A stretch of DNA of 64,000 bases from an uncultured Caulobacter sp. (GTDB taxonomy: Bacteria; Pseudomonadota; Alphaproteobacteria; Caulobacterales; Caulobacteraceae): assembly GCF_947036865.1 (NCBI RefSeq), contig NZ_CAMQSF010000011.1, positions 1 to 64,000 on the forward strand, given 5' to 3'. Positions 3,861 through 29,630 of the stretch are shown in pieces (position 1 is the stretch's first letter; each line of letters begins with the position of its first letter). The position numbers and the translations under genes were made by a program. Below the pieces are notes generated by a model. The model was given only the letters and a program-made list of their open reading frames with translations, had not been told where the DNA came from and did not search any database.

Positions 3861-4107
3861 GGCGGCGGCTCGAGAGACCAGCTGGGGGGAGTTGAGCTGG
3901 TCGGACGAGCCGCCGCCTCGCCGCGCTCCGGGGGGAACGAGAGCGCCGCGACGCGCGGGTGCGAAACGGACGCCTGGGCGGGCGGTTGGTGGCGTCCTCG
4001 CGAGACCCGCAAGACCCTTGTGTGCCAGCGCCCAAAGGCTCTCAAGGCGCCCAGGACGCCAGTCGTAGAAAGACAGGCCATGGCGTGGAAACGGCGGCTC
4101 CGCCCCA
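3861..4107 (-). ncRNA. Candidate structured leader of DUF736 copy 1
   Basis: The gene-proximal part is a nested hairpin: a 12-bp outer stem (3861-3872 with 3906-3917) around an 8-bp inner stem GACCAGCT/AGCTGGTC. The distal part, 3953-4014, shares the order GGGTGCGAAACGGA, CCTCGCGAGACCCGC and a CGGCTCCGCC hairpin with the leaders at 8.4-8.6 and 23.2-23.4 kb, though this is the most diverged copy. It would be transcribed with the downstream gene. No other gene is seen in 3804-4154. Confidence 0.45.
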
Positions 4108-4154
4108 CGCCGAGCCCCGCTGAAGGCCGGCTTGAAACATCCCCGGCGCGCCGC

Positions 4155-4183
4155 GCCCGCCCCGCCGGATCGGCGGGGCGGGC
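4155..4183 (-). terminator. Terminator of DUF736 copy 2
   Basis: A perfect 13-bp stem GCCCGCCCCGCCG/CGGCGGGGCGGGC with a GAT loop begins just past the stop codon. A near-identical hairpin follows the inverted pseudogene copy at about 5141-5167. Confidence 0.7.
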
Positions 4184-4191
4184 TGACCGCC

Positions 4192-4512
4192 TTAGTCCTC
4201 CTTGGGGCCGGTGCTACGCGACCAGACCAGGGTGTGGACCGTCTCGATGACCACCAGGGCGGCGTTGATCGCCGCGCCGAACGAGGGGTCGTCCAGCTTG
4301 ACCGACAGGTACTCGTTGTTGTCCTTGCTCGTCTTCTTCCAGGCGGCCCCGAGATTGGCGGCGCCGGCGGTGATGCGGAAATCGGGGCTCTTGTCGCTGG
4401 GCTTGTCGGCGACCGGGCGGATCTGGACCTTCTTGAGGTTGATGGCCAGGGTGTGGATCTCGCCCGTGAACGAGCCGTCAGCGTTGGCGGTGAAGGCGCC
4501 GATGGTGGACAT
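4192..4512 (-). CDS. DUF736 family protein (copy 2)
   Basis: A 106-residue DUF736 protein with the canonical start MSTIGAF, the GSFTGEIHTLAINLKKV strand, KSPDFRITAG and an EYLSVKLDDPSFGAAINAAL block. It is closer to the family consensus than copy 1. The start codon follows GGAGAGACC. It is the intact arm of an inverted duplication whose other arm, 4820-5131, is a pseudogene. The function of the family is unknown; co-occurrence with ParB-like, nuclease and HU genes points to mobile-element housekeeping. Confidence 0.88.
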   Translation of the reverse strand: MSTIGAFTANADGSFTGEIHTLAINLKKVQIRPVADKPSDKSPDFRITAGAANLGAAWKKTSKDNNEYLSVKLDDPSFGAAINAALVVIETVHTLVWSRSTGPKED

Positions 4513-4819
4513 GGTGGTCTCTCCGATCTGAACCGGGCCGCGCCGATCGCGGCCTCGATGGCGATCGCTGGACCGGGGCTTAAAGTCCGCCCCGCAGAGC
4601 GCGCCCCGCCCGTCCAAGCCGTGCTTGCGGGCGCGCTCCCGGAGCCTTGCGGAGGACCGAAGGCGTTGAAGTTTCTTGTCTCGCGAGGAATGGGGCGCCT
4701 GCGCCCCAAGGGAAGAAAGTCCAAGGCCAAGGTTGCGGGGACGGACCGGTCCCCGGTCAGATCAGGCCAGAAGAGGACGCGGTCGACGCGCCCGGCTCAG
4801 ATTTTCATGGAGAGACCGC

Positions 4820-5131
4820 CTGTTCATCTCGGCGCCGGAACGACAACCCTGGCGGCTGGTTCAGCGGCGAGATCCACACCCTGACCATCGGCCTCGAGAG
4901 TCCAGGTCCGCCCGGTTGCCGACAAGTCCGCGACATGAGCTCGGGCTTTCGCATCACCTGCGGGAATGCCGGGTTCGGGCCGCCGGACGATGACGAGTAA
5001 GGATGACAGCGAGCACCAGTTGGTCAGCCTGGACGTCCCTTGTTCGGCGCGGCGATCAACGCCGCCCTGGCGATCGTCGAGAAGGCGACCCCCTGGTCTG
5101 GTCGCGCAGCACTGGCCCCGAGGTGGACTAA
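4820..5131 (+). pseudogene. DUF736 pseudogene, inverted copy
   Basis: Translated piecewise in shifting frames it reads FSGEIHTLTIGLE, SSGFRITCGNAGFG, LVSLDVP, FGAAINAALAIVEKAT and LVWSRSTGPEVD, in the family order. At the place of the start codon the sequence reads GCCTGTTCATC where copy 2 has ACCATGTCCACC, so the ATG is lost. At least three frame changes follow. The terminator hairpin downstream is retained. It is a recently decayed inverted duplicate of the gene at 4192-4512. Confidence 0.75.
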
Positions 5132-5287
5132 GGCGGTCAACCCGCCCCGCTGATCCGGTGGGGCGGGCGCGGCGCGCCGGTCCTTCAGCCCGTCACTCGA
5201 TCCCTGCCCTCGCGCGGTCCACTGGGCGCTGACGTCTTGATCCGAGGCTGACTGGCGAAGCGCGCGACGCAGGCTATAGGCAGGGAC

Positions 5288-5704
5288 ATGCCCGCTCCCG
5301 TCGTCATCGGCGTCATCATCGCCTGCACCGCGCCGACCGTTCACGACGGCGATACCCTGCGCTGCGGGAAGACGTATGTTCGGCTGTTCGGCGTCGACGC
5401 CCCGGAAGTGCGGCGCGGCAAGACGGCGGCGGAGCCCTTGGCCTACGAGGCTCGCGATTTGCTTTTCAGCCTGACCCGCGAGCGGGTCGGCTGTCGGGTT
5501 GTGGCGGCGGACCGCTACGGCCGGCAAGTGGCCAAGTGCTGGTCGAGCGCCAGTCCTGACCTCAACGCCGCGATGATCCGGTCGGGCCTGGCGACGGAGT
5601 GGCGCCGCTACAGCAAGGGCGCTTACGCCGCCGCGCAGGACGAGGCGCGCATCGCTAAACGTGGCAACTGGGCACCGGGGGCGACGGCGCGCCCGGCCCG
5701 CTGA
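5288..5704 (+). CDS. Thermonuclease-like (SNase) protein
   Basis: A 138-residue protein of the staphylococcal nuclease-like family. It shows TVHDGDTLRC (metal-binding aspartates), VRLFGVDAPEVRRGK with the catalytic-type Arg and Glu, DRYGRQVAKC, and the C-terminal AAMIRSGLATEWRRYS and EARIAKRGNW elements. The hydrophobic N-terminus PVVIGVIIACTA could be a short signal or simply the first strand. Such small nucleases are common cargo of plasmids and integrative elements and may act in DNA entry or scavenging. It is convergent with the next gene. Confidence 0.85.
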   Translation: MPAPVVIGVIIACTAPTVHDGDTLRCGKTYVRLFGVDAPEVRRGKTAAEPLAYEARDLLFSLTRERVGCRVVAADRYGRQVAKCWSSASPDLNAAMIRSGLATEWRRYSKGAYAAAQDEARIAKRGNWAPGATARPAR

Positions 5705-5715
5705 CCCCGCAGGCG

Positions 5716-6009
5716 CTAGACCTTGGCGTCCTCGCGGCTCTTGAGGTCTTCGAATGACTTGGGGTCTTCGCCCATCGCCACGGCCTCGGCGCGCGTCCAC
5801 ACCCTCGTCTCGCGGCCCTTGGCGACCTTGATCTGAATTCCGCGCGTACGAATGCCGCGTCCTAGCGTGGTGCAGCAGGTCGAAAGGTTGGCGCCGACCC
5901 AGTCATCCCGGTCGAAGGTGATCAGGCCGGGACGCTCGCCATCGTCGCCGGTCTTCTCGAAGGCGGCTTGCATCTCTTCGAGGATGCGGTCGATCTGATC
6001 CTGAGTCAT
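5716..6009 (-). CDS. Hypothetical protein
   Basis: A protein of unrecognised family, 97 residues from the ATG at 6009. It opens with the helix MTQDQIDRILEEMQAAFEKTG, has a central LITFDRDDWVGANLSTCC segment and a charged C-terminus with TRAEAVAMGEDPKSFEDL. Longer starts exist at 6060 (ATG) and 6096 (TTG) and would add a hydrophobic stretch; no clear ribosome binding site decides between them. It lies downstream of the ParB-like gene on the same strand, beyond that gene's terminators. Confidence 0.55.
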   Translation of the reverse strand: MTQDQIDRILEEMQAAFEKTGDDGERPGLITFDRDDWVGANLSTCCTTLGRGIRTRGIQIKVAKGRETRVWTRAEAVAMGEDPKSFEDLKSREDAKV

Positions 6010-6102
6010 CGAGCGGCGATAGGTCGATTCCGCGCGTCGCCGACCGTCGATCCAGACCATCAGCCCGATGGTCCACAGGAAAGCGGGCGACGCCAAACGA
6101 AA

Positions 6103-6174
6103 GCGGCCGATCCCAAAGGATCGGCCGCGCCGGTCTTGCCGAAAAGATGACGGGTGGCCGCAAGGCCGCCCGTC
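6103..6174 (-). terminator. Double terminator of the ParB-like gene
   Basis: Two hairpins lie directly after the ParB-like stop. The first (6149-6174) has an 11-bp stem with a TTGC loop and is followed by ATCTTTTC, an intrinsic terminator. The second (6103-6128) is a perfect 11-bp stem GCGGCCGATCC/GGATCGGCCGC. Confidence 0.75.
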
Positions 6175-6179
6175 CCTCC

Positions 6180-8393
6180 CTACTCGGCCGCGTCCAGCAG
6201 AGCCGCGACCTCAGCCTCGTCCGCTGCGGTCTGTTCGGCCTCGCCGCCGCCCAAGACATCGTCCACGTCGGGCGCGACCTCCTCGGCCTCGTCTTGAGCG
6301 CCCGCCCCCTCGGGCGCCCCGGCCTCGGGGGTCGGGCCTTGATCGTCGTCCTCGGCGGACGCCTCGGCACGCGGACTGACGGTGCGCAGGACGGGCGGCA
6401 GCCATCCGGCTTCGACCAGCAGCGGCTCGGCCGCCTCGACCATCTGCGGCTTCTTCAAGCCCGACAGCCGCCCCGCCACCTCGGCCGACACACCATCGCC
6501 GACCGCCGCCATGATCTGGGCCTTGGTGACGCGGTCCAGGTAGCGCACGGCGGTCGGCCTCCAGTAGGCCCGCATGTCGAGATCAAGCGCCGTGGCCAGG
6601 GTCTCGACATGGGCCAGGATCGTTCGCTCACGACGCTCCCAGGTGCGCAGGCCATCGAGCGTCAGGCTCACGCAGTGGGCGAGCAGACAGGCGCGGCTGT
6701 CGGCGTCGAGCCCGACCACGAACGCCCAGATGTCCTCGGGGGCGCCGGGGACTTGGCGCGCCCAATGGCTGTGGCGTTCGGCGATGGAGAGCCCCGCCGG
6801 GCTTTCCTCGATGCCTTCGCCAAAGCCATTGAGGTTGCGCGACCCCCAACGGATGTCGAGGCAGGTCGCCGGAACGCCGAGGGCGAAGACCCGGCTGACC
6901 AGAGCGTGGACCAGGGCGAGTTGGGCAAGGTCCGGGTCCTGGGCCAGGGCGTCGCGAAGGGCCGCGGTGCGATGGGCGGTCAGTTCGGCGATCACGCGGT
7001 CGGGCAGCGGCGCGGCGGCGTCACCGTCGGGCTCGTCGATGTCGTCGTCTTCGCCGCCGTCGTCTGCGTCGCCGTCGCCGTCTTCTTCGTCCCTGTCGTC
7101 GTCTTCGCCGAGGAATGGGCCGTGATCATCGGCGCCGTCCTGCCCGTCATCGGCCTCGTCTTCCGGTTCGGGCGCGGGCTCGTCCTCGGGGCGGACAAAG
7201 CCCCGGTCGATCCGCACGTCGCCGTAGGGCAGCAACACCACCATAACACCGGCTCGCGCCTTCTCTTGCGCCGTGTGGCCGAAGTCGTCGCCCAGCGCCT
7301 CCAGTTCGGCTTCGATGGCCTCGAAGCGCGCGGCGACCTCGGGCGGCAGCGGGTCTGCCTCGGCCCACTGCTCGGTCAGGGCCGCCTCTTCAGCCTGCAA
7401 TGCGTTCACGGCGGCGACCGCCTCGGGCGTGCGCTCAAGCGCGTGTTCCCAGATACGGGCCAGGCCGTGGCCGTGCGGGAATTCGAGGTGAGCGCTCGCC
7501 CACTTCCAGCCCTCACGGTCGCGGATGTCCTGGGCCAGAGCGGCGAGCTTTTCGCCGACCAGGCGGTCGAGCAGAACGACGTCCTCGACCCAGCCGTCGT
7601 TGTCCTCGGTAAAGAGGTCGCGCAGCACCGGGCCGCCCGCCGCGACATAGGCGTCCAGCCCTAAGAAGCGCACGCGGCGGTCGTCGGCCCCCACCTTCAT
7701 CTCGGTCATGAGGCGACGGATGGCGTAGGGCTGGCGATTGCCCGGCGACAGCTGCTCATAGACCTGCATCTGCCGCACCGGATCGGGATTGACCGCGAAG
7801 GCGGTCACCTGATCGAGGGTCAGGACCCCTTCGCGATAGAGGTCGAGCAGCGCGGGCGACACCGCGCCGAGCCGCAGGTGCTTGCGCACGGTCTCGGGGC
7901 TTGGCCCGAACCGCGCGCTCAGCTCCTCGGCGCTGTAGCCCTTGCGCTCGGCGAGGTCCTTGTAGGCTTCGTACTGGTCAGCCGGGTGCATCGGTTCGCG
8001 GCTAAGGTTCTCGTCCATTGAGACCTCGGACGGGTCGTTGACCGTATCGACCACGCAGCGAACCGGCGCCCCCTTGGCCAACCGCTTGCGCTGGGCCAGC
8101 AGGCGTAGGGCTTGGCGACGCCCTTCGCCCGCGCTGACGAGGTAGTAGCCGGTTTCGCGCCCATCCTTGATCTCGGGTTCGACGACGAGCGGTTGCAGCA
8201 CGCCCTTGTAGGTGATTGAGGCCGCGCGGGACTCGATCACCTGGGCGCTGTGACCGACGCGTCGGACGTTGCGAGGCGAGGCTTTCAGGCGGTTCAAGGG
8301 AATGTCCCGAACCTCGCCGTACTGGACGACGATCTGGCTGGGCTTGGCGGCCGAAGCGTCAGCGACGGTCGCGCGGGTTTCTTGGGGGGTCAT
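6180..8393 (-). CDS. ParB/Spo0J-like DNA-binding protein
   Basis: A 737-residue ParB-fold protein. Residues ~25-130 hold the ParB N-terminal domain (IPLNRLKASPRNVRR, then a GEGRRQALRLLAQ motif). Residues ~140-190 hold a KorB/ParB-like helix-turn-helix (SAEELSARFGPSPETVRKHLRLGAVSPALLDLYREGVL). Roughly residues 400-460 are an extremely acidic linker, followed by a ~200-residue helical C-terminal domain and an acidic tail. It is much longer than segregation ParB and is the version carried alone, without ParA, on integrative elements. The start follows AAGGAGG. A candidate structured leader lies upstream. Confidence 0.88.
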   Translation of the reverse strand: MTPQETRATVADASAAKPSQIVVQYGEVRDIPLNRLKASPRNVRRVGHSAQVIESRAASITYKGVLQPLVVEPEIKDGRETGYYLVSAGEGRRQALRLLAQRKRLAKGAPVRCVVDTVNDPSEVSMDENLSREPMHPADQYEAYKDLAERKGYSAEELSARFGPSPETVRKHLRLGAVSPALLDLYREGVLTLDQVTAFAVNPDPVRQMQVYEQLSPGNRQPYAIRRLMTEMKVGADDRRVRFLGLDAYVAAGGPVLRDLFTEDNDGWVEDVVLLDRLVGEKLAALAQDIRDREGWKWASAHLEFPHGHGLARIWEHALERTPEAVAAVNALQAEEAALTEQWAEADPLPPEVAARFEAIEAELEALGDDFGHTAQEKARAGVMVVLLPYGDVRIDRGFVRPEDEPAPEPEDEADDGQDGADDHGPFLGEDDDRDEEDGDGDADDGGEDDDIDEPDGDAAAPLPDRVIAELTAHRTAALRDALAQDPDLAQLALVHALVSRVFALGVPATCLDIRWGSRNLNGFGEGIEESPAGLSIAERHSHWARQVPGAPEDIWAFVVGLDADSRACLLAHCVSLTLDGLRTWERRERTILAHVETLATALDLDMRAYWRPTAVRYLDRVTKAQIMAAVGDGVSAEVAGRLSGLKKPQMVEAAEPLLVEAGWLPPVLRTVSPRAEASAEDDDQGPTPEAGAPEGAGAQDEAEEVAPDVDDVLGGGEAEQTAADEAEVAALLDAAE

Positions 8394-8408
8394 GTCTGCC
8401 TCCTTGGG

Positions 8409-8597
8409 CAAGGGTTGCAGGCACGCGGAAGGCGCGCCTGAAACCCTGCCAAGCGGCGAGCGCGGGGGTGCAAACGGAGGGGCGTCTTCGCGGGGACCCG
8501 CCTGCAGGACGCGACCTGGCGATGGCTGATCCCTGTCGACACGGCCGAAGGTGGGCGGAAGACGATCCGAAGTGCGCTGGGGGCGGAGCCCCAAGCC
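8409..8597 (-). ncRNA. Candidate structured leader of the ParB-like gene
   Basis: Gene-proximal hairpin 8409-8447 pairs AGGGTT, CAGGC and CGC with GCG, GCCTG and AACCCT. The distal block 8455-8597 shares exact runs with the leader before the DUF3768 gene 15 kb away: GTGCAAACGGAGGGGCG, CTTCGCGGGGACCCG, GGGCGGAAG and GATCCGAAGTGCGC, ending in a GGCGGAGCCC hairpin. Both copies sit about 60 bases from their start codons in the same orientation. No ORF here is credible. Confidence 0.6.
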
Positions 8598-8942
8598 ACG
8601 GCCGCGGCAGCGGCCAAACAAGCCAAAACTCAGTCGGCCGATCTTATCGCGGATCCGGCCTTCGCAGAGATGGGCCCTCGATCGCGGCCAGGGCGGCTAG
8701 CCAGGCCGGCGTATCGGGTTCGGCCGTCACAGAGATGGACCCTCGTGGCCTTATCGTCGCAGCGCGCCCACCGCGCCTCGCGCTGTGACCCATAGGCCAA
8801 GAACACTCGTAGTGATCCGAGCAACCGAACATCGACCTTCCGCCGACAGGCCAAGCTTGCACCAGGCTGCGGGTCGAGCGACTTGGTATTGGCGGCCTGG
8901 CATTGGACCGTCATGGTGACCCAAACGGCCAGGACGCTTTTG
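8598..8942. other. Intergenic region without a recognised gene
   Basis: No convincing coding sequence. There is an imperfect repeat (CAGAGATGGGCCCTCG near 8665 and CAGAGATGGACCCTCG near 8731). The region should contain the divergent promoters of the ParB-like gene and the gene at 8943, but no consensus pair stands out. Confidence 0.4.
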
Positions 8943-9608
8943 ATGCCCAGACCCAGCAAGATCGACGAGGAGAGGTGGCGCACCGCGCTTGCCCTGGTGA
9001 TCGTCGAGACGGGCATGCGCAACTCTCGCCTAGAGGAGCTGCACGCGGGAATCTTCCCGACTTCGGCGGTCGGCGACTACAGCGACGTCAAGGTCGTCAC
9101 GCCCTACGGCGAGATCCCCTGGTCGCGGCTTTCGCGGCTGTGCGACGAGGAAATGAAGTCGCTGATGATCGAGGTGGTCAATCGCGTCTACACGATCTTG
9201 ATGAATCCCGAGCCCTTCAAGCGACTAATGGGGGCCGCGCGTTGGAACAAGCCCGAGCCCGATCCGGCCCTGATGGATGTCATCGCCCGCTGGGAGGCCA
9301 GGCAGCGTGGGATTTCGGACGAGGAGATCTGGGCGAAGTGGCCTCTGGACGAGTCCAAGCGCCCGCCGCCGATCCGCATGGAGCAACGAACGGCCGCCTA
9401 TGAGGCCGAGCTCGACGAACCACGGGAGCACTGGTCGTTCGAGGCGACGCCAGGAAGCCTGCGGGCCCTGGCCGAGGCTCCGGTTGCCGACGCGGCCTGG
9501 ATCGCCAAGGCCCGCGAGGCCCTGCGGCTGGGGGCCGAGGAATGGGAGCGCGATCGGATGACGATCCTAGACGAGGAAGACGCAGCCTATCTGCGCGACG
9601 AAACGTGA
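8943..9608 (+). CDS. Hypothetical accessory protein
   Basis: A 221-residue acidic protein of no family I recognise. It begins MPRPSKIDEERWRTALALVIVETG, has a mid-helical EEMKSLMIEVVNRVYTIL segment, a Trp-rich RGISDEEIWAKWPLDESK stretch and a charged C-terminus. No transmembrane segment or signal peptide is visible. The ATG at 8943 follows CAGGACG; an upstream in-frame start at 8883 has no support. It lies between the ParB-like and HU genes and is probably element cargo. Confidence 0.65.
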   Translation: MPRPSKIDEERWRTALALVIVETGMRNSRLEELHAGIFPTSAVGDYSDVKVVTPYGEIPWSRLSRLCDEEMKSLMIEVVNRVYTILMNPEPFKRLMGAARWNKPEPDPALMDVIARWEARQRGISDEEIWAKWPLDESKRPPPIRMEQRTAAYEAELDEPREHWSFEATPGSLRALAEAPVADAAWIAKAREALRLGAEEWERDRMTILDEEDAAYLRDET

Positions 9609-9665
9609 CAACCCAGCAGCGAAGACGCAGGCTCGCGCCTTCGATTCCCACACGGAGCCTACAAG

Positions 9666-9944
9666 ATGAACGTTTCGGATCTCGTCGACGCCGCCGTCGC
9701 GGCTGAACCCAAGCTCACCAAGGCCCAGGCGAAGGCCATCATCGATGGCGTGTTCAAGTCGCTCGCGGACGCGGCGGTGAAGGGCGAGGAAGTCTCGATT
9801 CCCGGCTTTGGCAAGTTCAAGGTCCAAGCCAAGCCCGCGCGCACGGGTCGCAACCCTTCGACCGGCGCGAGCATCGAGATCGCCGCCAGCAAGAAAGTTG
9901 CCTTCTCGCCGGCCAAGCAGCTGAAGGACGCGGTGAATTCCTAA
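9666..9944 (+). CDS. HU-family DNA-binding protein
   Basis: A 92-residue histone-like protein with the standard HU layout: N-terminal helices (LVDAAVAAEPKLTKAQAKAIIDGVFKSL), the VSIPGFGKFKV strand pair, a beta-arm centred on RTGRNPSTGASIEI, and the C-terminal VAFSPAKQLKDAV helix. It binds and bends DNA non-specifically. The Gly-Arg-Asn-Pro arm tip is intact. A hairpin terminator follows immediately. It may be the element's own chromatin protein rather than the housekeeping HU. Confidence 0.93.
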   Translation: MNVSDLVDAAVAAEPKLTKAQAKAIIDGVFKSLADAAVKGEEVSIPGFGKFKVQAKPARTGRNPSTGASIEIAASKKVAFSPAKQLKDAVNS

Positions 9945-9954
9945 TCTTTCGGGC

Positions 9955-9981
9955 AAGGGGCCATCGACAAAATGGCCCCTT
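9955..9981 (+). terminator. Terminator of the HU gene
   Basis: A 10-bp stem AAGGGGCCAT/ATGGCCCCTT with a 7-base loop begins ten bases after the HU stop codon. The mirrored A/T ends would let it work in both directions. Confidence 0.75.
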
Positions 9982-10464
9982 CGCTGGACAAACGCGTCGG
10001 TGGACGGCGGTCAGAACAAGCCAGCCGTGCGTCCGCCCCACGGTGCTGTCCCATCTCAACGACCTTAGCCGAAGCCCTGGCCCACGCCCGTAAGCTCTGC
10101 CGGACGCTGGCGAGCGCGCCCCTCCCCCAGGTTCGCGCCAAGGAGGTTTTCCAGACCTTGGTGCGTGCGCACGATTGGAGCCCGGCTTAGAAGAGAGATC
10201 ATCGCCTTTGGGCGGTGGCTCGACAACCGTCCCGCGCCCGGCGCGATCAATGAGCGCTACGAGCGGATGCTGAACGCCCTCTAGGGTTCAGCGCCGGAGG
10301 CGGCCCAACCCAGCCGCCGTGACCAAAGGTCTTGTACGCCGCCACGATCAGGCCCGCCACGCCCGCCAGCGCCTGGAAGCGGAGCCCCAAGCCTTTCCAA
10401 GCTGGAGGCTCGCCGTGGGCGAGCCGTCGCTACGTCGGATCTACGCGGGTTGGTGTCAGACCGG
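9982..10464. other. Intergenic tract with possible gene remnants
   Basis: A plus-strand frame reads REIIAFGRWLDNRPAPGAIN and ends at 10284 (GTG start at 10165, 39 residues). It looks protein-like but has no proper ribosome binding site. The frame just upstream ends AKEVFQTLVRAHDWSPA at 10190, so the pair may be a frameshifted small gene. At about 10378-10392 GCGGAGCCCCAAGCC repeats 15 bases of the leader before the ParB-like gene. Confidence 0.35.
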
Positions 10465-10839: not shown

Positions 10840-11010
10840 TCGCAAGCTCCTCGGAACGGCTGCCCTGTGACGATGGCGACGGATTTTGGAACCCGCCAGG
10901 ACTGACGGCCACTTAAGAACTCGCACGAGGCCATATAGTGGCGCTCGGCACGCTGGTTCCTGTCAAAGTATGGCGGAAAGACCTGCCCCTGTTGGAGACG
11001 TCCGTACGCC

Positions 11011-11499: not shown

Positions 11500-11652
11500 G
11501 CACTGGACCGTCCAGCGTCCCCGAACCGTTCCGGCGCTGCGGCTACAGCCGCCGCGCCGGAAGGTCTCGCCTGATTCCTCCGTAGTCGCCCTGAGCCAGG
11601 CTGGCGTGAGTGGCAGGCGACAGCCGCCGATTGATCGGATAAAGGCGCCGTC

Positions 11653-16381: not shown

Positions 16382-17007
16382 TGTTCACCGGGATCATCGA
16401 GACCGTCGGCGAGACCCTGTGGGTGACGCAAGCGGGGGACGGCGCCCTCAAGATCGGCCTGGCCACTGGGTTTTCCGATCTGACCCTGGGCGAAAGCGTC
16501 GCCGTCGATGGCGTCTGCCTGACGGTGATCGCCCAGGACGACGCTGGAGAGGCCACCTTCTTCCTCAGCGCCGAGACGCTGGCGCGCAGTACCTTCCCGA
16601 CCCTCGCCGTCGGCGCCCGCGTCAATCTCGAACGGGCGCTGCAGGTGTCGGCGCGGCTGTCGGGTCACATCGTGCAGGGTCATGTCGATGGCCTGGCGCG
16701 GATCACGGCCATCACCGGCGACGAGGACGATCGTCGCGTGCGCCTCAGACTGCCCGACGGCCTCTGGCCCTACTGCGTCGAGAAGGGATCGATCACCCTG
16801 AACGGCATCAGCCTGACCCTGACCGATGTCGGCCCGATCCAGGCCCCTGACGGGTTCAGCGTCGGCGTCGCCCTCATTCCCCACACCTGGACCCACACCA
16901 CCCTGCGGCACGCGGTCGTCGGCGATCTCGTCAATGTCGAAGTCGACGTGCTGGCCAAATATGCGGAGCGTCTATGTCACGTCTATCTGAAGCGCTCGCA
17001 CGCCTGA
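16381..17007 (+). CDS. ribE: Riboflavin synthase alpha chain
   Basis: A 208-residue riboflavin synthase that dismutates two lumazines to riboflavin. It opens with the diagnostic MFTGIIETVG and has two lumazine-binding repeats: SVAVDGVCLTV in the first, GSITLNGISLTLTDV in the second, with GHIVQGHVDG between. It is translationally coupled to ribD by a one-base overlap, and its end overlaps the start of ribBA by 34 bases in another frame. Confidence 0.93.
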   Translation: MFTGIIETVGETLWVTQAGDGALKIGLATGFSDLTLGESVAVDGVCLTVIAQDDAGEATFFLSAETLARSTFPTLAVGARVNLERALQVSARLSGHIVQGHVDGLARITAITGDEDDRRVRLRLPDGLWPYCVEKGSITLNGISLTLTDVGPIQAPDGFSVGVALIPHTWTHTTLRHAVVGDLVNVEVDVLAKYAERLCHVYLKRSHA

Positions 17008-18152
17008 GGGCGGGCGGGATGATCATCGTGGTCGACGACGTCGACCGGGAGAACGAAGGCGACCTGGTCATGGCCGCCGAGCATGTCGACGCCGCCGCCA
17101 TCGCGTTCATGGCCAAGGAAGGCAGCGGGCTGATCTGCCTGTCGCTGGAGGCCGGGGCCGTCGAGCGCCTGGGCCTGGCGCCCATGGTCGCCGACAACCG
17201 CACCCGACGCGGCACGGCCTTCACGGTCTCGATCGAGGCGGCGGAAGGCATCGACACCGGCATCTCGGCCCACGACCGGGCCAAGACCATCGCCGCGGCC
17301 ACCGCGCCGGGCGCATCCGCCGTCGACCTGGTCTCGCCGGGCCACGTCTTCCCGCTGCGGGCCGCGCCGGGCGGCGTCCTGGCCCGCCGCGGTCACACCG
17401 AGGCCTCCATCGATCTGGCGAAACTGGCCGGACTGAGGCCCGCCGCCGTGATCTGCGAGATCATGAACCCCGACGGCGCGATGGCGCGGGGCCCGAGCCT
17501 GGACGCCTTCGCGGCGCGTCACGACCTGCCGATCGTCTCGATCGCCGAGCTGGTGGCCCATCGTCAGGCTGTGACCGAAGTGGCGCGCTCGCACCTGCCC
17601 AGCGCGCGCGGCGACTTTGAAGTCGTGGCGTTCCGGTCGGCGGAAGCTGAACACCTGGCCCTGATCGCCGGTCCGCGCGATGGCGCCGCGCCGTTGGTCC
17701 GTATCCACTCGGAGTGCCTGACCGGCGACGCCCTGGGCTCTGGGCGATGCGACTGTGGCGAGCAGCTGCGCGCCGCGATGGACCGCATCGGCCAGGAAGG
17801 CGGTGTGCTGATCTATCTGGGCGGTCACGAAGGGCGGGGCCTTGGCCTGGCCAACAAGATCGCCGCCTACGCCCTGCAGGACCAAGGTCTCGACACGGTG
17901 TCGGCCAACCATGCCTTGGGCTTCGTCGACGACGCGCGCGACTACGGCGCGGCGTGCCAGATCCTGCAGGCCCTGGGCGTGCGGCAGGTGCGCCTGATGA
18001 CAAACAATCCGCGCAAGGCCGAGGCCGTGACGGCCGGCGGCCTGACCGTGGTCGAGCGCGTGCCGGTGCTGGCCCCGATCACCGCCGACAACGCCGCCTA
18101 TCTCAACGCCAAACGCGACCGGCTTGGCCATGACCTCGGTCACGTCGCCTGA
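16974..18152 (+). CDS. ribBA: DHBP synthase / GTP cyclohydrolase II fusion
   Basis: A 392-residue fusion. The N-terminal dihydroxybutanone-phosphate synthase has DDVDRENEGDLVMAAEH (21-37) and RRGHTEASIDLA. The C-terminal cyclohydrolase II (from ~200) keeps its zinc cysteines (Cys248, Cys259, Cys261 in HSECLTGDALGSGRCDCG) and TNNPRK. The active loop reads YLGGHEGRGLGL rather than the usual YLRQEGRGIGL, closer to the RGHEGRG form I associate with actinobacterial enzymes. Both halves look catalytically competent. The ATG at 16974 lies inside ribE. Confidence 0.92.
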   Translation: MSRLSEALARLRAGGMIIVVDDVDRENEGDLVMAAEHVDAAAIAFMAKEGSGLICLSLEAGAVERLGLAPMVADNRTRRGTAFTVSIEAAEGIDTGISAHDRAKTIAAATAPGASAVDLVSPGHVFPLRAAPGGVLARRGHTEASIDLAKLAGLRPAAVICEIMNPDGAMARGPSLDAFAARHDLPIVSIAELVAHRQAVTEVARSHLPSARGDFEVVAFRSAEAEHLALIAGPRDGAAPLVRIHSECLTGDALGSGRCDCGEQLRAAMDRIGQEGGVLIYLGGHEGRGLGLANKIAAYALQDQGLDTVSANHALGFVDDARDYGAACQILQALGVRQVRLMTNNPRKAEAVTAGGLTVVERVPVLAPITADNAAYLNAKRDRLGHDLGHVA

Positions 18153-18166
18153 AAGGACCTCACGCC

Positions 18167-18622
18167 ATGACCCATGATCTTCCCCGCATCGCCCTCGTCG
18201 TCAGCCGCTTCAATGCCGACATTGTTGACGGCCTGGTGCTGGGCGCCCGCGCGGTCCTCGAGGCCGAGGGCGTCAGCCTGGGCGAGGAGGACATCGTGGA
18301 GGCCCCGGGCGCTTTCGAGTTGCCGCTGATCGCCCAGACCCTGGCCGCCAGCGGGCGGTTCGATGGGATCGTCTGCCTGGGCTGCGTCATCAAGGGCGAC
18401 ACCGCGCACTTCGAGTATATCAGCCAGGGGGTCGCGGCCGGCCTGATGACTGCGGGGCTCAGCACCGGACGGCCGATCAGCTTCGGCGTCCTGACGACCT
18501 ACGACGAAGACCAGGCCCTGGCCCGCAGCCGCGAGGACGTAGACAACAAGGGCCGCGAGGCCGCCCACGCCTGTCTCCAGGCCTGGCGGACGCTCCGGTC
18601 GATCAGATCACGCGCGGCCTAG
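18167..18622 (+). CDS. ribH: Lumazine synthase
   Basis: A 151-residue 6,7-dimethyl-8-ribityllumazine synthase, the third-step enzyme joining the RibBA and RibD products. It has VVSRFNADIVDGLVLGA, EAPGAFELPLIAQ, GCVIKGDTAHFEYIS and FGVLTT, which build the substrate pocket with the catalytic His in the HFEY segment. It lies 14 bases after ribBA behind AAAGGACC. It is the last gene of the operon and is followed by an interrupted hairpin. nusB, which usually follows ribH on alphaproteobacterial chromosomes, is absent. Confidence 0.92.
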   Translation: MTHDLPRIALVVSRFNADIVDGLVLGARAVLEAEGVSLGEEDIVEAPGAFELPLIAQTLAASGRFDGIVCLGCVIKGDTAHFEYISQGVAAGLMTAGLSTGRPISFGVLTTYDEDQALARSREDVDNKGREAAHACLQAWRTLRSIRSRAA

Positions 18623-18687
18623 ACGGCGCCGCAGGCCGACGACCGCCCGGACTGAACGGCGTCGCCGATTGGGGAGCGGGTGACTGC

Positions 18688-18719
18688 CACAGGAACGGGC
18701 GAACACGCCCATTCCTGTG
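18688..18719 (+). terminator. Hairpin after the riboflavin operon
   Basis: CACAGGAA-C-GGGCG pairs with CGCCC-A-TTCCTGTG around an AACA loop, a 13-bp stem with one mismatch, 65 bases after ribH. Confidence 0.6.
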
Positions 18720-18853
18720 TCGAACACTCGACATCGAATACTGTCTAACCTCCTGACTTTGCTCTGGAACCAAAGTCTTTCGCTGGGATTGAAGCTGCAG
18801 TGAGCGGCCTCGGCAAAGGTTGTCCGGGCCGGCGGTGAGGACAGGGCCAGCCC

Positions 18854-19456
18854 ATGACGACGGCGTCACGCGACAAGATCTTCGAAAAAGAACTGGTTTC
18901 GCAGATCCCCCACCTGCGCGCGTTCGCCCGCTCGCTCTGTGGGGATGCGGTTCAGGCCGACGACTTGGCCCAGGACGCCGTCGCCAAGGCCTGGCGCTGC
19001 CGTGAAAGCTTCGAGCTGGGCACCAACATGCGCGCCTGGACCTTCATGATCCTGCGCAACCAGTTCCTGTCTGAGAAGCGGCGCAGCTGGCGGTCGGTGG
19101 AACTGGATCAGGAACGGGCCGAGCAGACCCTGGTCGCCACCGACAATCCAGCCGCCGCGATCGAGCTGGACGATGTCCGCCAGGCGCTGATGGCGCTGCC
19201 GGTCCCGCAGCGCGAAGCCCTGATCATGGTCGGGGCCGGCGGCTTTTCCTACGAAGAGGCCGCCGCGGTGATGAACGTGGCGATCGGCACGGTGAAGAGC
19301 CGGGTCAACCGCGCGCGCACCGAGCTGCAACGCCTGCTGGAGACTGGCGACTATGCCCGCGATGGCCGCCCGGTCGGCGAGGCCATGGCCGCGCTCACCC
19401 CCTGGGACGTGGCGCAACGCGCCGACGTCGTGCTGGACGCGCAGTCGGCCGCGTGA
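18854..19456 (+). CDS. EcfG-type ECF sigma factor
   Basis: A 200-residue ECF sigma factor. Region 2 is at residues ~15-85 (LRAFARSLCGDAVQADDLAQDAVAKAW, then MRAWTFMILRNQFLSEKRR) and region 4 at ~115-170 (LPVPQREALIMVGAGGFSYEEAAAVMNVAIGTVKSRVNRARTEL). The FSYEEAA and VGxGG features match the alphaproteobacterial general stress (EcfG/SigT) group. No NepR or PhyR gene is adjacent, so it is probably a secondary EcfG paralogue. It overlaps the downstream Nramp-family gene by four bases. An EcfG-type promoter lies before the flavoprotein at 20843. Confidence 0.87.
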   Translation: MTTASRDKIFEKELVSQIPHLRAFARSLCGDAVQADDLAQDAVAKAWRCRESFELGTNMRAWTFMILRNQFLSEKRRSWRSVELDQERAEQTLVATDNPAAAIELDDVRQALMALPVPQREALIMVGAGGFSYEEAAAVMNVAIGTVKSRVNRARTELQRLLETGDYARDGRPVGEAMAALTPWDVAQRADVVLDAQSAA

Positions 19457-20751
19457 CGGCCGCCCCGCCCCCGGACACCACCCAGCGCCCGGCGACCAGC
19501 CTGCTGCGCAAGCTCGGACCTGGTCTCGTCACCGGGGCGGCGGACGATGATCCCAGCGGCATCGCCACCTATTCCCAGACCGGCGCGCAGTTCGGCTATG
19601 GCCTCTTGTGGACCATGGTCCTGACCTATCCGCTGATGAGCGCGATCCAGCTGGTCAGCGCCCAGATCGGTCGGGTGACCGGCAAGGGCCTAGCGGCCAA
19701 TCTTGGCGAGGTGATGCCGCGCTGGGCGGTCAATCTGCTGGTGGTTCTGCTGCTGGTGGCCAACACCATCAACATCGGCGCGAACCTGGCGGCCATGGGC
19801 GCGGCCGCCGAGCTTCTCGCCCATCGCGGGTCCCACATCTTCACCGTGGGGTTCGCGGTGCTCTCGCTACTGCTGCAGCTCTTCGTGCCTTACCAGCGCT
19901 ACGTCGCGTTCCTCAAATGGCTGACCTTCGTCCTGCTGGCCTATGTCGCGGTGCTGTTCACCGTGAAGCTCGATTGGACCTCGGTCATCCAGGGTCTGGT
20001 CTGGCCGCGCGCGCAGCCGTCGGCGGCGCTGATCACGGCGATCGTGGCCATCTTCGGGACCACGATCAGCCCGTATCTCTTCTTCTGGCAAGCCGCCCAG
20101 GAGGTCGAGGAGGTCAATCGCAAGGCCCATGCCAAGCCGCTGACCGAAGCGCCCAAACAGGCCGGCCGGGCCATGCGGCGCATCCGGCTCGACACCCTGG
20201 TCGGCATGGCCGTCTCCAACCTGGTGGCCATCGCCATCATGCTGGCCACCGCCGCCACTCTGCATGTCCAGGGCAAGACCGACATCACCAGCGCCGCCGA
20301 CGCGGCGCGGGCCCTGGAGCCGGCCGCCGGGCGCTTTGCCTTCCTGCTGTTCGCGCTGGGCATCATCGGCACCGGCCTATTGTCCGTCCCGGTACTGGCC
20401 GGCTCGGCCGCCTATGCGGTCGGGGAGTGCCGCAAGTGGAAGTGCGGCCTGGCGCACAAGCCGTGGGAGGCGCCGGGGTTCTATGGCGTGATCGCCGCGG
20501 CCACCCTGCTGGGGGTCGGTATCGACTGGTCGCCGCTCGACCCGATGAAGGCGCTGTTCTGGAGCGCGGTGATCAACGGCGTGATCGCCGTGCCGATGAT
20601 GGCGGCGATGATGCGGGTGGCTTCGCGGCCCGGCCAGATGGGGCAGTTCGTGGTCGGGCGCGGTGTGCGCCTGCTGGGATGGATCGCCACGGTCGTGATG
20701 GGCCTGGCGGTGGCGGCCATGGCGCTCTCGCCGCTGCTGCCGCGCGGCTGA
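19453..20751 (+). CDS. Nramp-family transporter, atypical metal site
   Basis: A 432-residue inner-membrane protein with about 11 transmembrane helices, of the Nramp divalent-metal superfamily. In helix 1 the usual DPGN reads DDDPSG (31-36). In helix 6 the metal-binding Met-Pro-His reads Ser206-Pro207-Tyr208 (GTTISPYLFF). Loss of the methionine argues against classical Mn/Fe selectivity; Mg, Al or a non-metal substrate are alternatives. It begins inside the last codons of the sigma factor gene (GTGA overlap), so the two are coupled. Confidence 0.87.
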   Translation: MTAAPPPDTTQRPATSLLRKLGPGLVTGAADDDPSGIATYSQTGAQFGYGLLWTMVLTYPLMSAIQLVSAQIGRVTGKGLAANLGEVMPRWAVNLLVVLLLVANTINIGANLAAMGAAAELLAHRGSHIFTVGFAVLSLLLQLFVPYQRYVAFLKWLTFVLLAYVAVLFTVKLDWTSVIQGLVWPRAQPSAALITAIVAIFGTTISPYLFFWQAAQEVEEVNRKAHAKPLTEAPKQAGRAMRRIRLDTLVGMAVSNLVAIAIMLATAATLHVQGKTDITSAADAARALEPAAGRFAFLLFALGIIGTGLLSVPVLAGSAAYAVGECRKWKCGLAHKPWEAPGFYGVIAAATLLGVGIDWSPLDPMKALFWSAVINGVIAVPMMAAMMRVASRPGQMGQFVVGRGVRLLGWIATVVMGLAVAAMALSPLLPRG

Positions 20752-20781
20752 AGCGGCCGGGCGCGGAGTCCTCGCGCAACT

Positions 20782-20807
20782 GGAACCGGGTCAGGTCCAG
20801 TTCCGTT
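20782..20807 (+). promoter_or_regulatory. EcfG-dependent promoter
   Basis: GGAAC at 20782-20786 and CGTT at 20804-20807 are separated by 17 bp, matching the alphaproteobacterial general-stress consensus exactly. It lies 36 bp before the flavoprotein start and in a window that also encodes an EcfG-type sigma factor. Confidence 0.75.
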
Positions 20808-20842
20808 GAGCCGATGGAACCGACGCCGAGAGATAGCGCCCG

Positions 20843-21745
20843 ATGATCTACGACGCCCTCATCGTCGGCGCCGGCCCGGCAGGCCTGACGGCGGCTACCT
20901 ATCTCGGGCGCTTCCGCCGCAAGGTCCTGGTGCTCGACGGCGGCCCGTCCCGCGCCAGCTGGATCCCCGAGAGCCACAACACGCCGGGCTTCCCGCAGGG
21001 AGTTGGCGGCGGAGCGTTGCTCGCCCGTATGCGCGACCAGGCCGAACGCTACGGCGCCGTGTTCCAGACCGCGCGGGCAGAGACCTTCGAGCGTCGCGGC
21101 GACCTTTTCGCGGTACGCCTCTCCGGCGAGAGCGGCGGAACGGTTCAAGGGCGCACCCTGCTGCTCGCCGCTGGCGTGGTGGACATCAAGCCCGACCTTC
21201 CCGGGATCGATGCGGCCATCCGGCGGGCGCTCGTGAGGATCTGCCCGATCTGCGACGCCTATGAGGCCATCGACCAGGCCATTGCGGTGCTCGGCGATGG
21301 GCCGCTGGGCGCGCGCGAAGCGATCTTCCTGCGCACCTATTCCAACCAGGTGACCTTGCTGCATCTGGGCGCGAGCGACGATCTCGACCTTGTGGCGCTG
21401 CGCGAGGCCGGCGTCACCGTGATGGCCACCTCGCTGGGCGCCGTCAGGCTGGAGGACCAGGTGATCGTCGAGACGGGCGACGGTCGGGCGACCTTCGACT
21501 GCCTCTATCTGGCGCTCGGGTGCGAGATGCAGAGCCGTCTGGCGGTGCGGTGGGGCGCCGAGCACGACGACGACGGCAACCTGAACGTCGACGCCCATCA
21601 GCGCTGCTCGATCGACGGCCTCTATGCGGCGGGGGACGTGGTCCGAGGCCTCAACCAGATCGCCATCGCCACGGCCGAGGCGGCGGTCGCGGCCACCGAT
21701 ATCCACCGACGCCTGCGGCAGATCGATCCTTCGCCCGGCGCCTGA
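20843..21745 (+). CDS. Thioredoxin-reductase-like flavoprotein
   Basis: A 300-residue FAD/NAD(P) oxidoreductase of the thioredoxin reductase superfamily. The FAD loop is VGAGPAGLTAATYLGRF (8-24), a redox CPIC motif is at 134-137, the second nucleotide loop is GDGPLGAREA, and the C-terminal FAD motif is GLYAAGDVV. True thioredoxin reductase has CATC; the CPIC variant and the absence of a thioredoxin gene leave the partner unknown. It has its own EcfG-type promoter, so it is probably a stress-induced disulfide or peroxide-defence enzyme. Confidence 0.87.
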   Translation: MIYDALIVGAGPAGLTAATYLGRFRRKVLVLDGGPSRASWIPESHNTPGFPQGVGGGALLARMRDQAERYGAVFQTARAETFERRGDLFAVRLSGESGGTVQGRTLLLAAGVVDIKPDLPGIDAAIRRALVRICPICDAYEAIDQAIAVLGDGPLGAREAIFLRTYSNQVTLLHLGASDDLDLVALREAGVTVMATSLGAVRLEDQVIVETGDGRATFDCLYLALGCEMQSRLAVRWGAEHDDDGNLNVDAHQRCSIDGLYAAGDVVRGLNQIAIATAEAAVAATDIHRRLRQIDPSPGA

Positions 21746-21764
21746 AGGCGGCGCCGGGCGGGGA

Positions 21765-22196
21765 TTACCCGTCGGCCTCTTCCTCGCGCTCGTCGAGGAC
21801 GGCCATCGCGCCCATCAAGTCCAAGATCTGACGCCGCGCGGTGGACGGCAGGGCTGGAAAGTTCCGCGCCAACTCGACGCCCTCGGCCGACATCAGGAAG
21901 GCCTGCGTGGTGCGGGCGATCCGCTCGGCGTCCTGAGCCAGGGCGCTCTCGGGCTCGACGGGATCGGGCAAACCCTCGAAGAACCAGCCGACCGAGGTGT
22001 TCAGCACCGCCGCCATGCCGTGGAGCTTGGAGGCGCTGATCCGGTTGGCGCCGCGCTCGTATTTCTGGAGCTGCTGGAAGGTCAGGCCGACCGCGTCGGC
22101 CAGGGTCGTCTGGCTCATGCCCAGGCTCTTTCGGCGCAGGCGAAGCCGGGCGCCGACATGCAGATCGACGAAGTGGGGTGATGTTTCGGTCGGCAC
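21765..22196 (-). CDS. XRE-family transcriptional regulator
   Basis: A 143-residue protein with a helix-turn-helix at residues ~20-75 (VGARLRLRRKSLGMSQTTLADAVGLTFQQLQKYERGANRISASKL), followed by a short helical C-terminal domain. This is the layout common in Caulobacter regulators. I chose the GTG at 22196 because AGGGAG lies eight bases upstream; a TTG at 22217 is possible. It is convergent with the flavoprotein gene, 20 bases apart. Confidence 0.83.
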   Translation of the reverse strand: MPTETSPHFVDLHVGARLRLRRKSLGMSQTTLADAVGLTFQQLQKYERGANRISASKLHGMAAVLNTSVGWFFEGLPDPVEPESALAQDAERIARTTQAFLMSAEGVELARNFPALPSTARRQILDLMGAMAVLDEREEEADG

Positions 22197-22376
22197 GTCG
22201 GTGCTCCCTGGGCGCAATTGTCCTCAGGGGACATGACGGTTGACCGCCGTTACGCCGAGTCGGTCCAGCAGCCAGCGGTCGCGCGCGGGCGAGTCTCGTC
22301 CCAGACGCGAAAGTCGAGACGCGCAACATCCCCGATCAGGGTTCGCGGCCACGGTCGGCCCGCCCCTCGCGCGTCC

Positions 22377-22607
22377 TCAGCCAAGGGCGCGCACAGCCGC
22401 CAAGAACAACATCAGGGCGCCGAGTAACCCGGCGATCCGGCTAGCGCCCAGAACCAGGCGCTCGAGGCCACGCGTGGTCACCGACGCGCCGAAGCTGCTG
22501 AAGGTTTCCAGCCCGGCCATATTGCGCCGATAGAAGCGACGGCGTTTGACCCACAGGTCGGCAGCGACGGCCAAGGCCACTAGCCCGATACCAACAATCC
22601 ATTCCAT
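22377..22607 (-). CDS. Small membrane protein, unknown
   Basis: A 76-residue protein with two predicted membrane segments, MEWIVGIGLVALAVAADLWV at the start and IAGLLGALMLFLAAV at the end, joined by a basic KRRRFYRRN loop and an LETFSSFGASVTTRGLERLVLG stretch. The ATG follows GGAGG at five bases. No family recognised. Confidence 0.6.
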   Translation of the reverse strand: MEWIVGIGLVALAVAADLWVKRRRFYRRNMAGLETFSSFGASVTTRGLERLVLGASRIAGLLGALMLFLAAVRALG

Positions 22608-22853
22608 GGCAGCCTCCACGCGCCGAACTCAACCCTGGATAAACTATCACACCCCTGGCGACATCCAGAGCCGAACGATCAAGCCACCCGCCCGTCAGGT
22701 CCGCCCACGACCCCGACAATCTCTTCGAGGCCGGAAGAATGTCCCGCCGCCGCGCGCCGCCGCCTTTGCGGCGGCGCGTCGCGACGCGCCTGCCCCCCCC
22801 TGGCCCAGCAAGCCGGAGCGCCCTCCCCGCCCCGGCCGCCTCTGGCGCCAGGC

Positions 22854-23186
22854 CTAGTATTCCTCGGCCAGCATCAGGGTCAGCACCCGCTTGGTCACGG
22901 CCGGGTCGGCCGGATCGGTCGAAGCCATGCAGAGGTCGAGGTCGTAGTAGTCGATCTTCCAGAAGAGCTTGGCGTCGCCGACCATAAAGGCCCCGCAATC
23001 GCGCTCGCCGTGCGGGTTGTTGTCCTCGTGGAAGTCGGTGAAGGCGGTCACGGCGGCGAAGGCCTTCAGCTTGTCGCCCTCAGGCAGCGCGTGAACGCCC
23101 TGGGTCAATACCCAGCCCGCGCCGGGCTCGGCGCGGCAGGCGTCGTTCAGGGCCGCGATGGCGGCGGTATGGTCTTGCTCGGTCAT
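22854..23186 (-). CDS. DUF3768 family protein
   Basis: A 110-residue protein of DUF3768, a family of unknown function on alphaproteobacterial plasmids and integrative elements. Typical features are ALNDACR at the start, VLTQGVHALP, the acidic FTDFHEDNNPHGERDCGAF, FWKIDYYDLDL, and the near-invariant end DPAVTKRVLTLMLAEEY. The start codon follows TAGGAGAAAA. A leader closely related to that of the ParB-like gene lies upstream, which links the two genes to one regulatory scheme. Confidence 0.9.
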   Translation of the reverse strand: MTEQDHTAAIAALNDACRAEPGAGWVLTQGVHALPEGDKLKAFAAVTAFTDFHEDNNPHGERDCGAFMVGDAKLFWKIDYYDLDLCMASTDPADPAVTKRVLTLMLAEEY

Positions 23187-23208
23187 AGGAATTTTCTCCT
23201 AGGTGCTC

Positions 23209-23369
23209 GGGGTCAGGCGCAAAGCGCGCCTGACCCCGACGCCCGTCGGCGAGACCGGGTGTGCAAACGGAGGGGCGGCTTCGCGGGGACCCGGCTGCAG
23301 GACGGCCAAGGGCCGGCCGAAGCTGGGCGGAAGCCGATCCGAAGTGCGCCGAGGGCGGAGCCCTAAGCT
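23209..23369 (-). ncRNA. Candidate structured leader of DUF3768 gene
   Basis: A gene-proximal 12-bp hairpin (23209-23220 with 23226-23237, GGGGTCAGGCGC/GCGCCTGACCCC) abuts the ribosome binding site region. The distal block 23247-23369 is nearly the same as that upstream of the ParB-like gene, with a ~22-base deletion in the middle. The proximal hairpins of the two leaders differ in sequence but occupy the same place, as in a conserved RNA structure. Confidence 0.62.
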
Positions 23370-29599: not shown

Positions 29600-29630
29600 T
29601 CAAGTGCTCCGTGGGTGGATATGAAGAACG

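What the first reader, a model, noticed from the sequence alone, without database searches (positions are those of the whole stretch)
3861..23369. Recurrent structured leader upstream of DUF736, ParB-like and DUF3768 genes
Three unrelated genes in this window share a leader in the same orientation: a gene-proximal hairpin (3861-3917, 8409-8447, 23209-23237) and a distal conserved block (3953-4107, 8455-8597, 23247-23369). The two best copies have exact runs of 14-17 bases such as GTGCAAACGGAGGGGCG, though 15 kb apart. The hairpins differ in sequence but not position, the expected pattern for a conserved RNA. It could be a shared cis-regulatory RNA coordinating mobile-element genes, or a protein-binding site.
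Basis: partly seen in the sequence, partly recalled or inferred. Interest (0 to 1): 0.75.

Follow-up and report, generated by a model that had tools for sequence, protein, structure and literature searches.

The report
Folding switch upstream of anti-defence genes
A conserved DNA sequence that folds as a single strand sits just before anti-defence and related genes of mobile DNA in Alphaproteobacteria, and probably turns those genes on while the DNA is still entering a new cell as one strand.

Summary
Two of the three copies are real homologues: the leaders of the ParB-like gene (8449-8596) and the DUF3768 gene (23242-23368), both minus strand. The DUF736 leader is conserved separately; its membership is unproven. 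The element is a large family: matches in 36 of 101 genomes searched, 151 distinct copies collected, 48 plasmid records (38 of them only for part of the hairpin), mostly alphaproteobacterial. It lies 50-79 nt before ArdA, ParB-like, methylase, DUF3768 and DUF932 genes. An invariant frame (CTTRGGG hairpin, GCGCRCT...CCGYTTGCACMCCC) surrounds a hairpin whose stems covary strongly. It is probably not an RNA. Stem mismatches arise as A.C on the gene-sense strand more often than as G.T (45 against 17 parsimony gains), the reverse of a TPP riboswitch control (13 against 28), so the strand that tolerates G.T is the template strand. Elements are co-oriented with the relaxase in 17 of 17 chromosomal cases and 7 of 7 plasmids tested. 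Best reading: a template-strand hairpin acting as a single-stranded DNA promoter for entry genes, like Frpo of plasmid F, but without detectable -10/-35 boxes. Transcription from it is inferred, not shown.

The parts
23242..23368 (-). Element copy upstream of DUF3768 (best copy)
   Evidence: covariance model R1 135.8 bits; blastn match in 36 of 101 genomes, own included
23352..23364 (-). P1 mini-hairpin AGGGC-TCC-GCCCT (5-bp stem, 3-nt loop)
   Evidence: A-T/G-C double change at its first pair: 52 AU, 49 GC, 4 unpaired of 105
23263..23349 (-). P0-P2-P3 long hairpin, from GCGCACTTC to CCGTTTGC; stems covary
23207..23239 (-). P4 gene-proximal hairpin, 14-nt perfect arms
22854..23186 (-). DUF3768 gene downstream
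   Evidence: PF12599 E 3.5e-32
8449..8596 (-). Element copy upstream of the ParB-like gene
   Evidence: R1 122 bits
8470..8577 (-). P0-P2-P3 long hairpin of the ParB copy, with a longer inner hairpin
8411..8447 (-). P4 gene-proximal hairpin of the ParB copy
6180..8393 (-). ParB-like gene downstream (737 aa)
   Evidence: PF17762 E 3.4e-6, PF02195 E 1.5e-4 (below its cut-off)
3861..4107 (-). DUF736 leader: separately conserved structured leader, membership unproven
   Evidence: conserved in relatives 4-5 kb from the next element copy, same strand; not found by R1
3480..3803 (-). DUF736 gene downstream
   Evidence: PF05284 E 8.5e-16

Best explanation
The element is a single-stranded DNA promoter of the Frpo kind. 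During conjugation the template strand of these genes (by inference the transferred strand) enters the recipient as ssDNA and folds into the P1 mini-hairpin and the P0-P3 hairpin. RNA polymerase, or a factor that brings it, starts at the base of the hairpin near CACMCCC and reads the downstream gene (ArdA, ParB-like, methylase, DUF3768) before the second strand is made; conversion to dsDNA removes the hairpin and shuts expression off. SHOWN: the family, the covariation, the strand bias of stem mutations, near-constant distance to the start codon, gene content, co-orientation with the relaxase. INFERRED: that the template strand is the transferred strand, that transcription starts there, the on/off logic.
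For: Covariation: 227 double-change cells against 76 in shuffles, 0 of 500 shuffles as high. R25-Y135 pair in 151 copies: AT 82, GC 59, AC 8, GT 2. Strand: on 105 distinct copies GT gains 17, AC gains 45 (p 5e-4); G>A per paired column 2.0, C>T 0.54; unpaired 1.89 and 2.15. TPP riboswitch control (47 distinct, same genus and order): 28 GT, 13 AC (p 0.03); paired G>A 0.53, C>T 1.37; unpaired 1.82 and 1.17 (first element run). Watson-Crick-only folds of 151 copies: 25 A.C contexts against 3 G.T. Spacing to the start codon 50-79 nt in 115 of 126 copies with an ORF. Of 92 downstream proteins scanned: ArdA 43, HTH_ParB 15, DNA methylase 8, DUF3768 8, DUF932 3, DUF3991 2. Co-orientation with the relaxase: 17 of 17 elements within 60 kb of 9 DUF3363 relaxases and 7 of 7 plasmids. 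Several copies per genome (up to 9 matches, some of them short), as Frpo1 and Frpo2 in F (PMC9849209, passages read). No hit in viral contigs with one strict pattern or in phage records with one blastn query.
Against: No sigma-70 -35/-10 pair is enriched in or beside the element, whereas Frpo is said to rebuild both boxes. oriT was not located, so 'transferred strand' rests on relaxase orientation. Single copies fold no better than shuffles (template strand z -1.2 and 0.05). With an independent MAFFT alignment the mismatch bias holds (22 GT, 48 AC, p 0.0025) but per-column G>A and C>T rates in stems are equal (1.20, 1.18; unpaired 4.38 and 2.08). The number of standard pair types exceeds shuffles only weakly (reached by 51 and 54 of 500). 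P4 and the small hairpin before it show no strand bias. P1's outer pair is U-G on the sense strand in 83 of 105. 25 of 151 copies had no ORF meeting the rule. Three type-2 copies (L088, L092, L097) show a sense G.T in the stem (by eye). ArdA copies in three chromosomal elements lie 20-26 kb downstream of the relaxase, not on the expected leading side.
Confidence: 0.65

Rival explanations
1. A template-strand hairpin that primes second-strand synthesis (ssi or primosome assembly site), making the downstream gene double-stranded, with transcription from elsewhere.
For: The same strand bias would follow. Frpo itself is reported to make both transcripts and primers (title of Masai and Arai 1997 in the reference list of PMC11541004). 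The template strand carries GTGCAARCGGA, near the recalled n'-pas motif AAGCGG.
Against: Priming needs no 50-79 nt distance to a start codon nor one site per gene; R covaries with its partner, so AAGCGG is not kept as a sequence.
Confidence: 0.14
2. A cis-regulatory RNA in the mRNA leader.
For: Covariation; steady place before the gene; P1 outer pair U-G in 83 of 105; equal per-column stem rates in the MAFFT repeat.
Against: Stem mismatches are A.C rather than G.U, the reverse of the TPP control; no promoter-like enrichment upstream.
Confidence: 0.1
3. An antisense RNA made from the opposite strand, folding as the template-strand sequence.
For: Would give the same A.C bias.
Against: Little promoter signal on the antisense strand in the gene-proximal region (7.07 against 6.97 +/- 0.06 in shuffles); does not explain relaxase co-orientation.
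Confidence: 0.05
4. A double-stranded protein-binding site (partition or regulator operator).
For: P4 is a near-perfect palindrome without strand bias and could be an operator.
Against: Stems of P2-P3 are largely replaced between types while pairing is kept, which a dsDNA site does not need.
Confidence: 0.06

Closest known systems
Frpo / Frpo1-Frpo2 single-stranded promoters (plasmid F leading region)
   Same: Folded ssDNA upstream of entry genes; homologous copies before different genes of one element, same orientation; anti-restriction and methylase genes downstream (PMC9849209, PMC11541004, passages read).
   Different: No detectable -10/-35 boxes; no blastn match of one element copy in 20,395 E. 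coli records; Alphaproteobacteria; an invariant frame around a freely changing stem.
ssi sites / n'-pas / sso of conjugative elements
   Same: Hairpins acting on the transferred single strand.
   Different: Those prime DNA synthesis and are not known (recalled) to sit at a steady distance before many start codons. ICEBs1 sso paper PMC4595007: search listing and abstract start only.
N4 virion RNA polymerase hairpin promoters
   Same: P1 on the template strand is a 5-bp stem with a 3-nt loop in 105 of 151 copies, the loop all purine in 93; resemblance recalled.
   Different: No such polymerase was looked for; P1 lies upstream of the long hairpin, so a start there would read through it.
Structured leader RNAs (Rfam cis-reg)
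   Same: Position and covariation.
   Different: Strand bias reversed; no Rfam match at gathering scores.

Membership tests
Frpo-type ssDNA promoter | Sits upstream of entry (leading-region) genes | tested here: inconclusive
   Gene content fits and orientation relative to the relaxase fits 17 of 17 and 7 of 7; oriT not located; 3 of the 17 lie on the other side of the relaxase
Frpo-type ssDNA promoter | The transferred (template) strand is the one that folds | tested here: met
   A.C 45 against G.T 17 gains; control reversed; MAFFT repeat keeps the mismatch bias only. Template strand supported; that this strand is the transferred one is inferred
Frpo-type ssDNA promoter | Hairpin rebuilds -35 and -10 boxes | tested here: not met
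   mean best match 5.82 of 12 in the element against 6.11 shuffled; none of 151 with 9 or more
Frpo-type ssDNA promoter | Sequence similarity to known Frpo | tested here: not met
   no blastn match of the Haematobacter copy in the E. coli genomes and plasmids collection at 1e-5; known Frpo sequences were not compared directly
Frpo-type ssDNA promoter | Host RNA polymerase starts on the single strand | not testable with these tools
   needs in vitro or mating transcription
Cis-regulatory leader RNA | Covarying stems | tested here: met
Cis-regulatory leader RNA | G.U tolerated on the RNA strand | tested here: not met
Cis-regulatory leader RNA | Member of a described RNA family | tested here: not met
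   0 Rfam matches in the window; three matches in 7 further loci, none at the element
ssi / primosome assembly site | Supports priming on ssDNA | not testable with these tools
   -

The most novel reading that the evidence does not exclude
A new class of ssDNA promoter, spread over Alphaproteobacteria and occasionally beyond (Nitrosomonas), that is read by shape and a short invariant frame rather than by sigma-70 boxes, perhaps through the P1 mini-hairpin in the manner of N4-type hairpin promoters, and that defines the entry-gene regulon of their plasmids and integrative elements.
Probability: 0.35. Interest if true: 0.9.

Novelty: new variant of a known kind. Interest (0 to 1): 0.78.

Why it matters
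The ssDNA promoters in the papers seen here are from F and related plasmids, or were found by similarity to Frpo or to its boxes. A box-less family in another class would give a search handle for entry genes and unknown anti-defence proteins (DUF3768, DUF932, ParB-like) in many plasmids and integrative elements, and a direct test of how polymerase starts on a single strand. The strand-bias test, with its riboswitch control, could tell folded DNA from folded RNA for other orphan covarying elements.

Tried and rejected
Rfam at gathering and permissive thresholds: nothing relevant; the single weak match (CcsR1, 14.1 bits against a cut-off of 65.3) was dismissed. Simple transposition: the 100 nt upstream differ widely between copies (a subset of Caulobacter copies shares upstream sequence too) and the genes behind differ, so rejected as the main account. 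A phage origin: no viral contigs or phage records. Intrinsic terminators directly upstream as proof of an internal start: only 3 of 149 upstream regions, 7 of 745 shuffles, so not used. Column-based mismatch counts on type 2 and type 3 alignments failed, as the alignments gave no usable stems. MFE asymmetry on 25 cluster representatives: antisense better in 17, p 0.059, weak. The cells are dominated by one fixed A.C position, so parsimony counts were preferred. In one search, Xanthomonas loci L133, L144, L159 and also L157 are not in the 151, as they lack the CTTRGGG hairpin required. Not counted in the orientation tally: short palindromic opposite-strand matches (query about 144-192, the P4 hairpin), other short weak rows, and elements more than 60 kb from a DUF3363 relaxase. 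Two of 50 TPP sequences were skipped for contig-end position. In one search the L229 row was cut at the wrong place (its contig starts near the match) and is not used. The hit at 40450 (E 0.053) was dismissed.

Pfam scan input: 91 of the 120 non-redundant downstream ORFs, plus the window DUF736 protein added by hand. The 29 left out were near-duplicates, short ORFs and ORFs cut by locus ends, many ParB-like by eye, so ParB is under-counted. Plasmids tested for a relaxase: 8 of the 48 records, chosen by me; one (Roseibium) gave none.

Full report
WHAT IS IN THE WINDOW. The window lies on contig C11 of a Caulobacter genome; the genus is inferred because two contigs of the same-genus relative G055 have the lengths of Caulobacter zeae records. 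Minus-strand genes for DUF736 (3480-3803), a ParB-like protein (6180-8393) and DUF3768 (22854-23186) were confirmed with Pfam. The leaders of the ParB-like and DUF3768 genes share 74% identity over 196 aligned positions, far beyond 1000 shuffles. The DUF736 leader gives no blastn match to them, is missed by the covariance model, and its alignment score to the ParB copy is reached by 4 of 1000 and to the DUF3768 copy by 523 of 1000 shuffles. It is conserved in its own right: 18 of 101 genomes have a match, nine of them (own included) at E below 1e-20, and where both are seen it lies 4-5 kb from the next element copy on the same strand (window, G054, G043, G056, G030, G003, G033, G008, G057).

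THE FAMILY. blastn with the DUF3768 copy finds matches in 36 of 101 genomes (own included; a few only short and weak), up to 9 per genome. Fifty distinct copies were extracted, aligned (A1) and modelled (R1). R1 finds the element in 31 of 200 genomes of the order and 8 of 385 of the class, own genome counted in each. A pattern scan of genome contigs returned 116 stretches before stopping at its limit, 80 listed with titles: mostly Alphaproteobacteria (Caulobacterales, Sphingomonadales, Rhizobiales, Rhodobacterales and others), with true-looking copies in two Nitrosomonas records and in metagenome-assembled genomes labelled Anammoxibacter, Magnetococcales, Acidobacteriota and Myxococcota, whose labels may reflect binning. 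In plasmids there are 10 records with one query and 48 with another; the listed 48 are all alphaproteobacterial by genus name, and 38 of them match only 29-50% of the query. A type-2 query gave no plasmid match. Viral contigs, phages and E. coli gave none. A stricter regular expression over all loci gives 151 distinct copies.

ANATOMY (gene-sense orientation). CTTRGGG-hairpin-CCC (P1); GCGCRCTTC; a long hairpin (P0, P2, P3); TCCGYTTGCACMCCC; a small hairpin; the gene-proximal hairpin P4; a ribosome-binding site; the start codon, 50-79 nt after the element in 115 of the 126 copies with an ORF by the rule used (25 had none). The frame is nearly invariant in 64 cluster representatives, in part because the expressions used to collect copies require it, while the long stem is largely replaced between types. 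pAgK84 and pC6.5e keep the hairpin core in a different frame.

COVARIATION. On A1, 14 pairs change on both sides, shuffled mean 6.2, 0 of 500 as high. On A2 (108 model-fitted matches, 105 distinct), 227 double-change cells against 76.0 +/- 11.4, 0 of 500; sliding the partner by one to three columns drops paired cells from 94.6% to 35-47%. The count of further pair types is only weakly above shuffles (51 and 54 of 500 reach it). The R25-Y135 pair is AT 82, GC 59, AC 8, GT 2 of 151. Single sequences do not fold better than their shuffles; the evidence is comparative.

WHICH STRAND FOLDS. A stem used as RNA tolerates G.U, so C>T on that strand is cheap and G>A is costly; a stem used on the other strand shows the reverse. 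With Fitch parsimony on a FastTree tree, the element has 17 G.T and 45 A.C gains on the sense strand. Paired columns gain G>A 2.0 and C>T 0.54 per column, while unpaired columns gain 1.89 and 2.15, so a general mutation bias does not explain it (the first run, without the outer P1 pairs, gives 15 and 45, p 1.3e-4). The TPP riboswitch from the same genus and order gives 28 G.T and 13 A.C; paired 0.53 (G>A) and 1.37 (C>T), unpaired 1.82 and 1.17. The parsimony step is the same, but the TPP stems came from folding both strands of a MAFFT alignment, the element's from the covariance model. Watson-Crick-only folds of 151 copies give 25 A.C against 3 G.T contexts over four types, though one fixed A.C position dominates the cells. 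Treating the element like the TPP set (MAFFT, stems found on both strands) keeps the mismatch bias (48 against 22, p 0.0025) but shows equal per-column rates in stems, 1.20 and 1.18. I read this as good but not final evidence that the template strand folds. P4 and the small hairpin before it show no bias.

CONTEXT. Pfam on 92 downstream proteins (91 of 120 non-redundant ORFs plus the window DUF736): ArdA 43, HTH_ParB 15, N6_N4 methylase 8, DUF3768 8, DUF932 3, DUF3991 2, single hits to a TraG-type coupling protein and TrbL. Anti-restriction and methylase genes are described for plasmid leading regions (PMC11541004, passages read); DUF3768 and DUF736 do not occur in that paper's main text. Relaxases of the DUF3363 type were found in 8 of 10 genomes searched. 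Every counted element within 60 kb of one shares its strand: 17 of 17, at 9 relaxases in 7 genomes (element positions); 14 lie 9-37 kb upstream of the relaxase, 3 (all before ArdA genes) 20-26 kb downstream. Of 8 plasmids examined, a relaxase was found in 7, and all 7 are co-oriented (pBIND01, HM006 accessoryA, pSmeRU11a, pAgK84, pC6.5e, pSR6, pOT1-2, the last by a weak partial match), while only 15 of 40 and 13 of 30 annotated genes of pAgK84 and pC6.5e lie on the relaxase strand. Relaxase genes usually enter last and point away from oriT (recalled), which would put these genes' template on the transferred strand; oriT itself was not located.

PROMOTERS. The best -35/-10 match is no better than shuffles upstream (6.42 against 6.52), in the element (5.82 against 6.11) or after it (6.36 against 6.29), and on the antisense strand 5.99 against 6.10 in the element and 7.07 against 6.97 near the gene. 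Alphaproteobacterial promoters can be far from the E. coli consensus (recalled), so this weakens, but does not exclude, a conventional promoter.

CONCLUSION. The parts fit a single-stranded DNA promoter for entry genes, working like Frpo but failing two of its membership tests (boxes, sequence). A priming site is the strongest rival because it predicts the same strand bias. Seven literature searches (listings only) and passages of three papers turned up no account of this element; most subscription papers are not held, and the 2017 list of 224 RNA candidates was not found under the DOI tried.

Noticed in passing
L058 13628-14878; L059, L113, L117, L171, L217 (L189 holds the gene too, element not checked): An IS110-family transposase gene (72-98% identical to the L058 copy, which is annotated as IS110) ends about 60-140 nt upstream of the element in several genera, suggesting a target site at the element's upstream border.
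   Followed up: partly
window 3918-4125 (minus strand): The DUF736 leader is a separately conserved structured leader with its own stems and a weak 3' match (TCCGTTTCGCACCCGCG) to the frame.
   Followed up: partly
window 4192-4617: A second DUF736 gene lies directly upstream of the first, with no element copy found before it by the model.
   Followed up: no
window 4143-4198 and 5125-5180: A 56-nt stretch with GC-rich inverted-repeat arms occurs twice at 95% identity, in opposite orientation, on the two sides of the second DUF736 gene.
   Followed up: no
L284 14480-14560, L287 32120-32200: pAgK84 and pC6.5e carry the hairpin core in a different frame, before small genes and a ParB-like gene; two stem differences between them leave A.C on the sense strand in pAgK84 (by eye).
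   Followed up: partly
window 27764-43022: Cargo with two AcrB-type efflux pumps, an OEP, a cation-efflux protein and an E1-E2 ATPase: probably a metal-resistance island.
   Followed up: no
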